Of a DNA stretch of 64,000 bases, positions 49,258 to 61,118 are shown piece after piece. The stretch spans positions 2,273,416 through 2,337,415 of the forward strand of contig CM060064.1 in assembly GCA_030533445.1 (NCBI GenBank), written 5' to 3'. This stretch comes from Cyprinodon diabolis. Its lineage: Eukaryota; Chordata; Actinopteri; Cyprinodontiformes; Cyprinodontidae. The position numbers were made by a program, and so were the translations under genes. Position 1 is the first letter of the stretch, and each line of letters starts with the position of its first letter. The notes below the pieces were generated by a model that was not told the origin of the DNA, ran no database searches, and worked only from the letters and a program-made list of their open reading frames with translations.

Positions 49258-50015
49258 GAAAAGTCCAGTCAGCAATAATAATAATTCAATTTATTGTCAT
49301 TACACTGTCTCAAGTACAGGGCAGCAAAATGAATTCTCTGCATTTAACCCATCCCCTTGCGGAGCAGTGTGGGGATGTGGGGTTAAGGGTCTTGCTCAGG
49401 GACCCAGAGTGGCAGTCTGTGAGAGTGGGGGATCAAACTCACAACCTCAGGATTCAAAGCCCTATGCCCTAACCACTAGGTCACCACTCACATTTAATGA
49501 ATTAAGTGTTAATAACTAAAAAATTAAAACAATAATTTTCATTGTGATCACGGAGTCTGGGAGCGGCCATTTTTGCCCAAATATAGTAACCCCTCCCTCG
49601 TGCCATCTTCCAGCAGTGACGTCACGGTGCGGTAAGCCTAGCGCCATTCTCCCCGCTTTACAAGCTAAATCAATGGGAACTACTAGACACATCTGCAATC
49701 AACAACAATTATTGAAGATTTACAGAGGACTTCACCATTGAAATTCACCAGAGCTATAGTGAAACTGACAATGCCCACCAGCATGGCAGCTGGATGCTGG
49801 AATACATCGGGTAAAAGTGAAAAAAAAGAGTTATTCCACCTTTCCGATTCCTGATCCTCCATGGACGGGTTGGTCGTTGGATCGCCAACTTGAAGAGGGA
49901 GGATTTGCCATCGAACTTCTGGCCAGAGAAAAAACACGTAATATGTAGCCAACATTTGGAAGAAGAATGTTTTCAATATGACTTCGATAATAGCGCGTTG
50001 TGACAAACACACAAC
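49258..50015 (+). mobile_element. THAP-domain DNA transposon fragment (copy 3), split by a SINE
   Basis: It begins AAAAGTCCAGTCAGCAATAA, is interrupted by the SINE at 49278-49490, then continues TTAAAACAATAATTTTC, GAGCGGCCATTTTTGCCC and GTGACGTCAC. The THAP-coding region follows at about 49770-49980, ending GATAATAGCGCGTTGTGAC. The coding part shows ATGGCAGCTGGATGCTGGAA (Met-Ala-Ala-Gly-Cys-Trp) and later TGTAGCCAACATTTGG (Cys-Ser-Gln-His-Leu) in a different frame, as in copy 1. Confidence 0.6.
49278..49490 (-). mobile_element. tRNA-derived SINE (family A, copy 2)
   Basis: On the minus strand it has a CTAGTGGTTAGGGC A-box, a GAGTTTGATCCCC B-box region, and the body GGGGATGGGTTAAATGCAGA. The tail TAATGACAATAAATTGAATT is followed by ATT repeats. 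It interrupts the THAP element. Confidence 0.75.
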
Positions 50016-57207: not shown

Positions 57208-57212
57208 ATCAC

Positions 57213-57565
57213 TGTTACGTTCAAAATATTGTAGGTTTATGATAAAAAAGAAACTGAGTCCACACAGAATAGGGTTCTTTGGCTCCTGCAAGAGGAGAGT
57301 CACATTCAGCTACATCTGCCCTCTCTCTGTGGTGCATCGGCCAGGAATTGAACCTGGGGCACCCACATGGCAAGCAAGAATTCTACCACTGAACCACCAA
57401 TGCTCCTCTTGATTGAATCACAGCATGATGCAACCGTGTGACTTTGCCTCATGACCTAATGATTGAATCACAGGATAGCAGGATGCAGGTCACAAAAGTC
57501 TACGACCCTCTTGATTGAATCACAGTACACAACTGTAGCATAATTTTATAATCATAACTCTAACA
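57213..57565 (-). repeat. 3' LTR of the provirus
   Basis: The 353-bp sequence is nearly identical to 60516-60870, with small differences such as an extra AG in the right copy's GAGAGAG. It contains a twice-repeated GTGATTCAATCAAGAGG motif in U3, a tRNA-Gly-like segment at 57330-57403, and a T6 run downstream of it. No canonical AATAAA was seen. Confidence 0.9.
57330..57403 (-). ncRNA. tRNA-Gly(GCC)-like sequence with CCA inside the 3' LTR
   Basis: Read on the minus strand, the 74 nt begin GCATTGGTGGTTCAGTGG and fold as a tRNA. The acceptor GCATTGG pairs with CCGATGC (one G-T), the D stem is GTTC/GAAT, and the anticodon loop TTGCCAT holds GCC. The T stem CCAGG/CCTGG is perfect. A discriminator A is followed by CCA. 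The A box matches and the B box (GGTTCAATTCC) has one change from the usual. Vertebrate tRNA genes do not encode CCA, so this looks like a copy of a mature tRNA. Function as a tRNA or promoter is unknown. Confidence 0.75.
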
Positions 57566-57576
57566 TTTCCCCCCTG
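57566..57576 (-). other. Polypurine tract
   Basis: On the minus strand AGGGGGGAAA lies immediately before the 3' LTR start TGTTAGAG. This is the expected plus-strand primer position. Confidence 0.8.
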
Positions 57577-57874: not shown

Positions 57875-58024
57875 TAACTAGGACTCTAAAGGACTGGGTT
57901 AGGTTGTTTTCTTCACCAGCGTTGAGACGAATGGTCCTAAAAAACCAAACCCCTTTGAAGCTGGACTTCACCACAGATCTGTACCTTAGTTATGGGGTTC
58001 CTGTGAAGGTGACTGGACTTTCTG

Positions 58025-58373
58025 TTGGGGAAAATCTTTAATCAGCTTACAATGACTCTGGTGGATCCAAGTGTTTCTTTCCTGAATTTTCACGGCGGTG
58101 GGGGTTGTTAGTTGCACTATGTAGGGTCCTTCCCACCTCGGAGCTTTCCAAGTTTTCCTTTTGATGATCTTTAATTAGCACTCGGTCTTCAGGCTTCAGG
58201 CCTTCCTGTGGGGAAACAAAAGGAGCACTAGGCAGATTACATGTTTTCCGAACAGTTTTGTCACTGAAAAGCTTCAGCATCCACTTAGTTAGCGGGTCAA
58301 TGTCATCTTGTTCTTTTTCTACCCATGGCTGTCCTTCCCATAGAGGTAGAACAAAAGGTCTCCCATTCACTAT
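58025..58373 (-). pseudogene. Integrase C-terminal remnant of pol
   Basis: The frame at 58047-58370 carries on from the integrase core fragment to its right, after an 8-bp tandem duplication (58366-58373 and 58374-58381) that changes frame and introduces a stop. It contains the linker and the beginning of the C-terminal DNA-binding region. Another frame change follows, since the W-E-G-P-Y-style motif of the GPY/F module is readable only in a neighbouring frame. The catalytic DDE residues are not present. It is non-functional. Confidence 0.7.
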
Positions 58374-58675
58374 TTCACTATTTCAAAAGGGGTCAAACCA
58401 TCAGATGTTGGAATAATCCTCATGAGTATTTTTACCAAGTGCAAACACTCTGGCCATGGCTTTCCTGTTTCTGCCATGAATTTTCTCAATCTATTTTTAA
58501 CATCCTCGGACCATTTAACTGGGTTCTGTCTGGCTGGAGTTAAAACTTGACAGGCAGTCTGCATCTCTGCATCTGTCCTTGGCCTACACACAAGAATAGT
58601 GGGTCTGTGATCTAGTGGGTCATTATCTTGGGGTCCGGTGCGTTGACCATAACGAGGGTTGGCCACCTCTAACAT
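58374..58675 (-). pseudogene. Gag-to-integrase deletion junction
   Basis: The first about 55 residues read as capsid-region gag (ILVCRPRTDAEMQTAC). They pass directly, without a stop, into integrase sequence (KFMAETGKPWPECL, then TSDGLTPFEIV, typical of gamma-like integrases). The rest of capsid, nucleocapsid, protease, RT, RNase H and the front of integrase are missing, a deletion that probably arose between short similar sequences or during reverse transcription. The upstream frame change falls in a homopolymer at 58692-58700. Confidence 0.7.
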
Positions 58676-59438
58676 TGGAAAAGCACATGCACCCCCCCCC
58701 AGGATCTTGGTCCTGTTCTTGTTTTTTTAATTCAGCCAATCTTGGATAAATAGGGGCAGATGGGCCTTTTTTACAAGCCTCTACTTGATAATCATTATTG
58801 TAATACTTTGAATTAAGCTTCACATCCCTTTTTGATTTTCTTAATTCATGCTCACAAGGGTCAGGGGCACTGAGTTCCATACCATCCACAGAGGACGATA
58901 TGGACAGGGGGCTTGCTCCTGCTCCTCCAATATCATTATACGATGGTGGGGCTACTGGAGGAGGAACAGTGGCATGGCTGTGTTCATATTCACCGTGATG
59001 GGGTTTATGTCCACCTTCCTGTGCAGCTGATGCCACTGCTTGAACCCCATCACCCCCTTGAATTTGATTAGCATCAGGATATTGAGGAAGCATACGGGAT
59101 ACAACAGTTTCTTCATCAGCTTTAACTTTTACAGCAGCAATTGTAGCTTTCTTTCTATCCTTCTTCTGTTGTATTTGGCTTTCCCTATTTTTTGCTTGCA
59201 TAATCCACTTATTTAACTCTTCTAATTCTTTTCTGTATTTAGCTTGTTTTCTTTTTGATTTATACACCAACTTCATCTCCACCTTCTGCTGAATCTTCGT
59301 CAGCGGCTCAACTCTCAACTTTCCATCCCAGTCCTCCTTCTCAATCCACTTTCTGGCAAACTCTGGGTCACCACCACAACACGCAACCATCCATCTAACA
59401 TCACCTGGCATTTCCTTCTTACTACTACTTTGTCCCAT
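58623..59438 (-). pseudogene. Gag N-terminal (matrix/p12-like) ORF
   Basis: The 271-residue minus-strand frame opens MGQSSSKKE, a classic N-myristoylation signal (Gly2, Ser5-6) followed by basic residues, for membrane targeting of Gag. Residues 46-100 are highly charged and probably helical or coiled. PPSY at 164-167 and PSAP at 226-229 are late-domain motifs that recruit NEDD4-type ligases and TSG101 for budding. After residue about 246 a run of nine G (C9 at 58692-58700 on the plus strand) shifts the frame, and the last about 20 residues are off-frame. The start is well supported as the first Met with the myristoylation context. Confidence 0.75.
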
Positions 59439-59760
59439 TTTTAAAGAATTTAGTCCAGTACAAACACCTAGGGTATTCTACGCACTGGATGTTTATTCAG
59501 CAGGACAACACCCAAACACTGTTGTGGTAATTTCTGCTTCTACCTTTTCAGGTGAGAAATTCTTGCCTCTGCATCCACAAGAGTTATACTGTATTAATTC
59601 CTGCTGTTTTAGTATGAAACAACAGAACACAACGGTTCGATTGTTTCCTCACACACTTTCACACAGTCACACACACCTATTCTAAGGCCTAATATTTTTA
59701 TTTTATTTTAACCAACATAGACAAAAAACATTTATCGTGTACACTTTGGAGTCTCCAGCT
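59439..59760. other. Proviral leader between gag and the repeat array
   Basis: No ORF. This is the presumed 5' untranslated leader. A splice donor and packaging signal would lie here or in the repeats, but none can be fixed by eye. Confidence 0.4.
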
Positions 59761-59774
59761 CCAGAACCTCGCAC

Positions 59775-60310
59775 GCACCGGATACCCAGATCCCAGATCT
59801 GTCAACAAAACTTGGTTTCGTCAAATATCCCTGCTGCAACTGAAAACCTTACTTTCTCGATAACAACACAGAGTCCCAGGCTCAAATGCACAGAATACTC
59901 AGATCCCAGATGTGTCAACAAAACTTGGTTTCGTCAAATATTCCTGCTGCAGCTGCAAACCTTACTATCTCGAGAACAACACAGAGTCCCAGACTCAAAT
60001 GCACAGAATACCCAGATCCCAGATCTGTCAACAAAACTTGGTTTCGTCAAATATTCTTGCAACTACAACCAGTTATAGCTTGAACACAGAGGGTCCCAGA
60101 CCCAAATGCGCAGAATACTCAGATCCCAGATCTGTCAACAAAACTTGGTTTCGTCAAATATTCTTGCAACTACAACCAGTTATAGCTTGAACACAGAGGG
60201 TCCCAGACCCAAACGCACAGAATACCGATCCCAGATCTATCACAACAAACCCTGTTTGTCAAATATTCTTGCGACTACAACTAGTTACAGCTTTCACATG
60301 GTCCCAGACC
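59775..60310 (-). repeat. Five-copy tandem repeat in the retroviral leader
   Basis: Each about 105-120-bp unit carries CAGATCCCAGATCTGTCAAC and AAAACTTGGTTTCGTCAAAT on the plus strand, starting near 59787, 59907, 60015, 60118 and 60227. Units 3 and 4 share a spacer (AACTACAACCAGTTATAGCT) different from that of units 1 and 2 (AACCTTACT-TCTCGA). Unit 5 is the most diverged. Plus-strand open frames across it are artefacts. Confidence 0.85.
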
Positions 60311-60493: not shown

Positions 60494-60511
60494 CCCGTAG
60501 TTTCGGCACCA
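60494..60511 (-). other. Primer-binding site, tRNA-Phe-like
   Basis: On the minus strand, TGGTGCCGAAAC followed by TACGGG starts four bases after the 5' LTR end. The first 12 nt are complementary to the 3' end of vertebrate tRNA-Phe (...GTTTCGGCACCA, from memory). The remainder has small changes. Confidence 0.7.
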
Positions 60512-60515
60512 AAAA

Positions 60516-60870
60516 TGTTACGTTCAAAATATTGTAGGTTTATGACAAAAAAGAAACTGAGTCCACACAGAATAGGGTTCTTTGGCTCCTGCAAGAGGAG
60601 AGAGTCATGTTCAGCTACATCTGCCCTCTCTCTGTGGTGTATTGGCCAAGAATTGAACCTGGGGCACCCACATGGCAAGCGAGAATTCTACCACTGAACC
60701 ACCAATGCTCCTCTTGATTGAATCACAGCAGGATGCAACCGTGTGACTTTGCCTCATGACCTAATGATTGCATCACAGGATAGCAGAATGCAGGTCACAA
60801 AAGTCTACGACCCTCTTGATTGAATCACAGTACACAAATGTAGCATAATTTTATAATCATAACTCTAACA
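60516..60870 (-). repeat. 5' LTR of the provirus
   Basis: The 355-bp sequence runs from TGTTAGAG to CGTAACA on the minus strand. TATAAAA occurs very near the start of U3. The tRNA-Gly-like segment occupies 60635-60708, roughly LTR positions 163-236. A T6 run conserved with the other LTR follows about 85-90 nt downstream and could stop a pol III transcript. Confidence 0.9.
60635..60708 (-). ncRNA. tRNA-Gly(GCC)-like sequence with CCA inside the 5' LTR
   Basis: The same 74-nt cloverleaf as in the 3' LTR, here with CTCGC in the anticodon stem and CCAATAC closing the acceptor. It retains the GCC anticodon, discriminator A and terminal CCA. The two LTR copies differ at about four positions. The first 29 nt equal the canonical vertebrate tRNA-Gly(GCC) as I remember it, and most later differences are transitions. 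Confidence 0.75.
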
Positions 60871-61118
60871 ATCACTGAAATAAGATTCTTCCTGATCAAA
60901 ATCACACTCCTAGACTGAACTGTAATAATATGTTTTTCTAAAATACATTTTTGCTGCAGAAAATGAATTTAAGAAGGTAAAAAAACAAAATTATACGACT
61001 AAGAATTAAGTTTTATATATATCTAGAAACATTTTAAGTGGCCGTTTTGACATTTATCAGCTTGACTGAAAATGTATTTATATCTGAAGTACATTTTGTT
61101 CATAGTTGAAATAATACA

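What the first reader, a model, noticed from the sequence alone, without database searches (positions are those of the whole stretch)
60516..60870. A mature-looking tRNA-Gly(GCC), CCA included, embedded in both LTRs of a retrovirus
Both LTRs contain, in proviral orientation, a 74-nt segment that folds as a complete tRNA with a GCC anticodon, A- and B-box matches, discriminator A and then CCA. Nuclear vertebrate tRNA genes lack CCA, so the simplest origin is copying of a processed tRNA into the viral genome during reverse transcription. It is retained as part of the LTR at about positions 163-236, with a conserved T6 run downstream that could end a pol III transcript. It is not the primer tRNA, since the PBS resembles tRNA-Phe. 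Possible roles, all inferred, are a pol III promoter, a tRNA-like RNA structure affecting translation or packaging, or a passive passenger.
Basis: partly seen in the sequence, partly recalled or inferred. Interest (0 to 1): 0.88.

Follow-up and report, generated by a model that had tools for sequence, protein, structure and literature searches.

The report
Captured tRNA scar in a provirus
A cellular glycine tRNA, apparently with the tail that cells add after transcription, was copied into one retrovirus-derived element of what looks like a fish genome, in place of part of its control region, leaving an unusually clear record of a copying mistake.

Summary
Both LTRs of a minus-strand provirus (5' LTR 60870-60516, 3' LTR 57565-57213) contain a 74-nt sense-strand tRNA-Gly(GCC) ending in CCA. 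Its picture of a tRNA kept by the LTR family is not. I read 28 other LTRs of the family in the host assembly (1.22 Gb), and none has the tRNA. All 28 carry a native ~100-nt segment there, with AATAAA in 26 of 28. Seven further LTRs show the native spacing. Genome scans for each tRNA-LTR junction find only this provirus. The 5' junction shares GCATT between LTR and tRNA. The 3' junction supplies CC(A), absent from 28 of 28 host tRNA-Gly genes whose flanks I read (all GTG). Outside the replaced block, the LTR inferred at insertion equals a tRNA-less relative, so the capture happened in, or very near, the reverse-transcription cycle that made this provirus. The T6 run is ordinary family LTR. Best reading: a one-off template switch onto tRNA-Gly that replaced the poly(A)-signal segment, probably a dead end. 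It resembles tRNA-mediated recombination reported for HIV and MLV, here inherited inside both LTRs.

The parts
60516..60870 (-). 5' LTR of the provirus (355 bp)
   Evidence: 96.3% identical to 57213-57565; flanked by target duplication and PBS
57213..57565 (-). 3' LTR of the provirus (353 bp)
60635..60708 (-). captured tRNA-Gly(GCC) with CCA in the 5' LTR, in place of ~100 nt of native LTR
   Evidence: ARAGORN; Rfam 46.8 bits; replacement seen
57330..57403 (-). captured tRNA-Gly(GCC) with CCA in the 3' LTR
   Evidence: ARAGORN; Rfam 51.3 bits
60704..60708 (-). 5' junction: GCATT shared by the native LTR (AGCATT|TTG) and the tRNA 5' end (GCATT|GG); same in 3' LTR at 57399-57403
   Evidence: alignment; junction only here in the genome with up to 2 mismatches
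60635..60637 (-). 3' junction: CCA of the mature tRNA joined to CAGAGAGAGGG of the LTR; same in 3' LTR at 57330-57332
   Evidence: junction only here in the genome at 0 mismatches
60871..60875 (.). target-site duplication ATCAC, beside the 5' LTR
   Evidence: read directly
57208..57212 (.). target-site duplication ATCAC, beside the 3' LTR
   Evidence: read directly
60500..60511 (-). primer binding site TGGTGCCGAAAC (tRNA-Phe-like, recalled)
   Evidence: read directly
57566..57575 (-). polypurine tract AGGGGGGAAA
   Evidence: read directly
59775..60293 (-). leader tandem repeat, ~113 bp x 4.8
   Evidence: TRF
58623..59477 (-). gag-like reading frame (MGQSSSKKE...); matches P0001 of Cyprinodon tularosa at 85%
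57989..58174 (-). MLV-type integrase C-terminal domain remnant (MLVIN_C)
   Evidence: Pfam PF18697 E 9.8e-12

Best explanation
This is a scar of tRNA capture. While the minus-strand cDNA of a non-autonomous class I endogenous retrovirus was being made, the reverse transcriptase left the viral RNA in the LTR. It switched to the CCA 3' end of a mature cellular tRNA-Gly(GCC) and copied the tRNA towards its 5' end. It then returned to the LTR template through the shared GCATT, skipping ~100 nt of native LTR that held the AATAAA signal. Both LTRs come from one cDNA, so both received it. Shown here: the replacement, the junctions, the CC(A) absent from the host genes examined, junctions found only in this provirus, and flanks unchanged from a tRNA-less relative. 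Inferred: the order of the jumps, minus-strand timing, and that the provirus is impaired because it lost the poly(A) signal. Most likely the tRNA has no function there.
For: 28 of 28 other LTRs read carry the native segment and none the tRNA. Thirty LTRs with both arms located give gaps of 74, 74 (window) and 102-110 in 28 others. Whole-genome pattern scans find the 3' junction (0 mismatches) and the 5' junction (up to 2 mismatches) only in this provirus; a junction-spanning DNA query agrees (40 of 433 candidates scored). Host tRNA-Gly genes have GTG after the discriminator in 28 of 28 read. The LTR-LTR differences outside the tRNA are each private to one LTR, and relative L010 has the inferred insertion-time state at every one. 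Sense orientation and presence in both LTRs are what minus-strand capture predicts. Precedents are described in PMC12220202.
Against: Two positions shared by both LTR copies (tRNA 43 T and 45 C) match no host gene listed. The exact 22-nt core occurs only in the provirus, and of 130 matches to a looser core pattern 100 were listed, none with this core except the provirus. So either the source gene is missing from the assembly or lost, or the copying introduced changes, or there was an earlier cycle. A58 is kept, with no sign of misincorporation at an expected m1A58 (modification recalled). With GCATT shared, the 5' end of the tRNA is not a sharp boundary. The A of CCA is also ambiguous, so only CC is firmly non-LTR. 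Flanks of the few human-like tRNA-Gly genes on C14 and C24 were not read. The 3' junction scan allowing 2 mismatches did not complete.
Confidence: 0.86

Rival explanations
1. The tRNA was captured in an earlier cycle and this provirus is the surviving descendant of a small tRNA-bearing lineage.
For: Two or three tRNA positions shared by both LTRs differ from the host genes listed.
Against: No other tRNA-LTR junction found in 1.22 Gb; LTR flanks at insertion equal a tRNA-less relative; no AATAAA left in the LTR, which would hinder further cycles (inference).
Confidence: 0.1
2. DNA-level event: a SINE or a tRNA gene inserted into an LTR, which was then mobilised or spread by gene conversion to both LTRs.
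For: Kojima 2024 (PMC10886601) proposes SINE insertion for tRNA-bearing TRIM LTRs; a SINE-like tRNA relative exists in this window (49421-49490).
Against: Native LTR is replaced rather than interrupted; no duplication around the tRNA seen; no SINE body, tail or tRNA-gene flank seen; CC(A) present where the host genes read have GTG.
Confidence: 0.03
3. A functional pol III promoter or tRNA-like RNA element of the LTR, as suggested for Helenus/TRIMp3 elements.
For: By reading, both copies match A-box TRGYNNARNNG and B-box GWTCRANNC (consensus recalled); a T6 run lies ~80 nt downstream.
Against: Found in one provirus only; the T-run belongs to tRNA-less LTRs as well; no sign of post-insertion constraint; one of 20 stem pairs is broken in the 5' LTR copy.
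Confidence: 0.02

Closest known systems
[quoted passage not shown] known here only through passages in PMC12220202)
   Same: A tRNA-derived stretch takes the place of a deleted viral segment during reverse transcription.
   Different: There a selected laboratory variant (63 nt of tRNA-Asp or 65 nt of tRNA-Glu in place of an artificial hairpin in nef). Here a natural germline provirus, tRNA-Gly through CCA, inside both LTRs.
tRNA-Gly between the LTRs of circular MMLV DNA (Colicelli and Goff 1986, as described in PMC12220202)
   Same: tRNA-Gly copied by a retroviral reverse transcriptase and joined to LTR sequence.
   Different: There at the LTR-LTR circle junction, with four 5' bases missing; here within each LTR and replacing native LTR.
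tRNA-Gly with CCA beside an HIV 3' LTR (Gurgo and Franchini 2025, PMC12220202; abstract, part 1 of 2 of the Discussion and passages seen)
   Same: Mature tRNA-Gly signature CCA abutting retroviral DNA, replacing other sequence.
   Different: There outside the provirus, replacing an equal number of host nucleotides in a cell line; here inside the LTR and duplicated with it. Those authors also propose integration of the tRNA copy independently of the provirus.
Helenus / TRIMp3 (Kojima 2024, PMC10886601)
   Same: tRNA-derived sequence inside the LTRs of a non-autonomous element.
   Different: Helenus is a family trait of TRIMs (311-1263 bp, animal TSD 4 bp, mostly not predicted to encode a functional tRNA). 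Here a single 3.66-kb provirus, TSD 5 bp, and a tRNA-less family.
Neurospora retroplasmids that incorporated tRNAs (Akins 1989, Chiang and Lambowitz 1997; seen only as cited in passages of PMC9925561 and PMC12220202)
   Same: Reverse transcriptase starts at the 3' end of a tRNA, and plasmids with tRNA copies arise.
   Different: Mitochondrial plasmid, not an LTR element.

Membership tests
tRNA capture by retroviral reverse transcription | Mature-tRNA mark (CCA) absent from the genes | tested here: met
   CC(A) in both copies; GTG in 28 of 28 host genes with flanks read; genes on C14 and C24 not read
tRNA capture by retroviral reverse transcription | Relatives without the tRNA show an undisturbed native segment | tested here: met
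   28 of 28 held; spacing in 7 more not held
HITME-type recombination | Junction caused by a stable hairpin in the template | tested here: inconclusive
   3' junction lies inside a predicted stem-loop of the native LTR (81 nt, z -2.6); the replaced 99 nt alone (z -0.13) and a 141-nt stretch around it (z 0.19) are not unusual
Helenus / TRIMp3 | tRNA-derived sequence is a trait of the LTR family | tested here: not met
Helenus / TRIMp3 | Short element (311-1263 bp), animal TSD 4 bp | tested here: not met
   3.66 kb, 5-bp TSD; limits from PMC10886601
Helenus / TRIMp3 | Pol III transcription | not testable with these tools
   no transcript or occupancy data
Class I (gamma/epsilon) endogenous retrovirus, non-autonomous | MLV-type integrase C-terminus, PBS, PPT, LTRs with TSD | tested here: met
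   PF18697; PBS, PPT, TSD read
Class I (gamma/epsilon) endogenous retrovirus, non-autonomous | Position in a reverse-transcriptase tree | not tested
   no reverse-transcriptase region was recognised in this copy; no autonomous parent was sought
SINE or tRNA retropseudogene insertion | Own target duplication or tail around the tRNA | tested here: not met
   none seen by reading; native segment is replaced

The most novel reading that the evidence does not exclude
The tRNA was the bridge of the first strand transfer itself. The 3' junction lies ~18-20 nt after the native AATAAA, where an LTR's R boundary is expected. Strong-stop cDNA may have run to an RNA end there and jumped end to end onto the CCA of tRNA-Gly. 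It may then have used the tRNA's own GCATT, not R homology, to land on the viral 3' end. Reports of tRNA-Gly in MMLV and HIV would make this a recurrent, tRNA-Gly-favouring bypass of normal strand transfer.
Probability: 0.3. Interest if true: 0.7.

Novelty: new variant of a known kind. Interest (0 to 1): 0.5.

Why it matters
The retroviral cases of tRNA capture that I found come from laboratory infections (as described in PMC12220202). Here a germline genome preserves one event with tRNA-less relatives alongside, so both junctions can be read to within a few bases and the capture placed at or near the insertion. It shows how a complete tRNA can enter an LTR in one step, without a SINE, and so offers another possible route to tRNA-bearing LTR families such as Helenus. 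It also suggests a screen: CCA-ending tRNAs inside LTRs whose relatives lack them would log strand-transfer errors and show whether tRNA-Gly is favoured.

Tried and rejected
(2) Pol III terminator: the T-run is in tRNA-less LTRs too. (3) SINE insertion: no duplication or tail seen. (4) 49421-49490 as a third copy: it scores below the Rfam threshold, its surroundings look like a SINE (by eye), and LTR BLAST does not find it. (5) Cloverleaf in the LTR RNA: ViennaRNA does not predict the whole cloverleaf in the LTR context, nor for the LTR tRNAs, the recalled human tRNA or a host tRNA alone, so it is uninformative.

Led nowhere: protein searches with two LTR-crossing reading frames found nothing; one viral contigs protein scan, one viral contigs pattern scan and one genome contigs pattern scan found nothing relevant. 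Searches looked for tRNA in LTRs or tRNA capture; going by titles, starts of abstracts and the passages opened, I saw no germline LTR with a complete tRNA plus CCA. The library is open-access only. Passages of PMC11996679, PMC4977317 and PMC3532108 were seen and not used.

Full report
What is there. The window holds a provirus on the minus strand: 5' LTR 60870-60516 (355 bp) and 3' LTR 57565-57213 (353 bp), 96.3% identical. It has a 5-bp duplication ATCAC on both sides, a PBS TGGTGCCGAAAC and a purine tract before the 3' LTR (read). ARAGORN finds two tRNAs in 64 kb, both tRNA-Gly(GCC), one in each LTR. Rfam agrees at 51.3 and 46.8 bits, and none of 5000 dinucleotide shuffles of the 3' LTR gives a tRNA. 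Both copies end in CCA and are in sense orientation.

The element. The internal part is ~2.95 kb: a leader with a 113-bp tandem repeat, a gag-like frame, an MLV-type integrase C-terminus (PF18697) and an env-like start (by eye). Most of gag and pol appears to be missing (by eye and size). A protein of Cyprinodon tularosa has the same gag-to-integrase arrangement (439 aa, 85% identity over 92% of the query; the only hit at E 0.001 among 907 candidates). In the host genome, 10 of the 28 other held loci carry matching internal sequence. Among the 40 scored matches, five other LTR pairs, not counting the C17 array, lie 3.25-4.26 kb apart. This looks like a non-autonomous family.

The decisive comparison. 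The host assembly has 1.22 Gb in 936 contigs. I searched it with the LTR part on the U5 side of the tRNA, so that copies were chosen without regard to the tRNA (40 of 181 candidates scored, 30 loci held, two of them the window's own; 141 candidates not scored). The 28 others are LTRs of 378-388 bp, and none has the tRNA. They carry a native segment of ~100 nt, with AATAAA in 26 of 28. A search with the other LTR arm (40 of 200 candidates scored) let me measure the gap between the arms in 30 LTRs: 74 and 74 in the window, 102-110 in the 28 others, seven of which were not among the held loci.

Junctions. On the 5' side the native LTR reads CAAGAGGAGCATT|TTGTCC and the provirus CAAGAGGAGCATT|GGTGG; GCATT is also the start of the tRNA. 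On the 3' side the provirus reads ...GCACCA|CAGAGAGAGGG (5' LTR ...ACACCA), where native LTRs read ...GGAGACAGAGAGAGAGGG and variants; the last A can be either partner's. So the tRNA replaced native sequence and did not simply insert. A junction-spanning DNA query matched in full only the two window LTRs, the other 38 scored matches covering the tRNA part only (40 of 433 candidates scored). A whole-genome scan for the 3' junction without mismatches found two places, both here, and one for the 5' junction with up to two mismatches found the same two LTRs. A 3' junction scan with two mismatches did not complete.

Source of the tRNA. The host has large arrays of a tRNA-Gly(GCC) variant. A core pattern has 130 matches genome-wide, 100 of them listed, with 1,864-bp spacing in several stretches. 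Of the 38 tRNA-gene matches, 28 were held, and all 28 have GTG after the discriminator base, not CCA. The flanks of the other genes, including the few human-like ones on C14 and C24, were not read. The captured tRNA shares the array-type bases. Both LTR copies differ from the commonest gene at positions 43, 45 and 49; A49 occurs in some array genes, while T43 and C45 were seen in none listed, and the exact 22-nt core exists only in the provirus. The donor gene may be lost or unassembled, or these may be copying changes. This remains open.

When. At the seven flank sites where the two LTRs differ, and at a 2-nt deletion, one LTR is private and the family state is seen in 26-28 of 28 others. Relative L010 has that state at every one, and differences shared by both window LTRs against L010 are confined to the replaced block and the adjoining GA run. 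So the template before capture was an ordinary family member, and the capture happened in, or very close to, the cycle that made this provirus. After insertion the tRNA changed at 4 of 74 sites and the flanks at 7 of 276 (Fisher p 0.25): no sign of constraint.

How. The sense orientation, the CCA end joined to downstream LTR, the microhomology at the tRNA 5' end and the presence in both LTRs all fit a switch during minus-strand synthesis. The reverse transcriptase moves from viral RNA to the 3' end of a tRNA, copies it, and returns through GCATT. The 3' junction lies ~18-20 nt after the native AATAAA, where an R boundary is expected. It may therefore coincide with an RNA end, and the tRNA may have bridged the first strand transfer (inference; transcript ends unknown). 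It also lies in a predicted stem-loop of the native LTR (z -2.6; two other stretches covering the replaced segment are unremarkable), which recalls hairpin-induced tRNA-mediated recombination in HIV. The provirus's LTRs lack AATAAA, so poor 3'-end formation is predicted and would explain why no daughters are seen (inference). A 3'-CCA is known to resist RNase Z (PMC11649783, passages), so even if the tRNA were transcribed, normal 3' trimming is not expected (inference).

Against known systems. PMC12220202 (abstract, part 1 of 2 of the Discussion and passages seen) reports tRNA-Gly with CCA beside an HIV LTR. It also describes two earlier cases: tRNA-Gly between MMLV LTRs, and tRNA-Asp or tRNA-Glu replacing a hairpin in HIV. 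Helenus (PMC10886601; abstract, Methods, part 1 of 2 of the Results, Discussion, legends and tables read, except 21 and 22) is the family-level analogue of a tRNA in an LTR, but the defining features tested here are not met. The present case is a natural, germline, LTR-internal variant of tRNA capture. I saw no paper describing one in my ten searches, but the library is limited.

Noticed in passing
G000 C21, C26, C710, C711, C712, C936 (loci L003-L008, L041-L068): Large arrays of a variant tRNA-Gly(GCC) gene, often 1,864 bp apart; 130 core-pattern matches genome-wide, two of them in the provirus. High dosage could favour tRNA-Gly as the captured tRNA.
   Followed up: partly
G000 C17:2768126-2781990 (L027-L032): Six LTRs of this family in a tandem array with an exact 2,750-bp period and no match to the window's internal region in the held flanks.
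   Followed up: no
59775-60293: Leader of the provirus carries a ~113-bp tandem repeat, 4.8 copies.
   Followed up: no
58623-59477 and 57989-58174: Gag start joined to the integrase end, the same arrangement as a 439-aa Cyprinodon tularosa protein.
   Followed up: partly
LTR positions 41-161 (5' LTR 60830-60710): TGTGATTCAATCA-like motif three times at ~51-bp spacing upstream of the capture site, also in tRNA-less LTRs.
   Followed up: no
LTR after the tRNA, about 60580-60620: CTCTCTCCTCTTGCAG|G looks like a 3' splice site inside the LTR (by eye; present, with small changes, in the 11 LTRs aligned).
   Followed up: no
49421-49490: SINE-like tRNA relative just below the Rfam threshold (28.5 versus 29 bits).
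   Followed up: no
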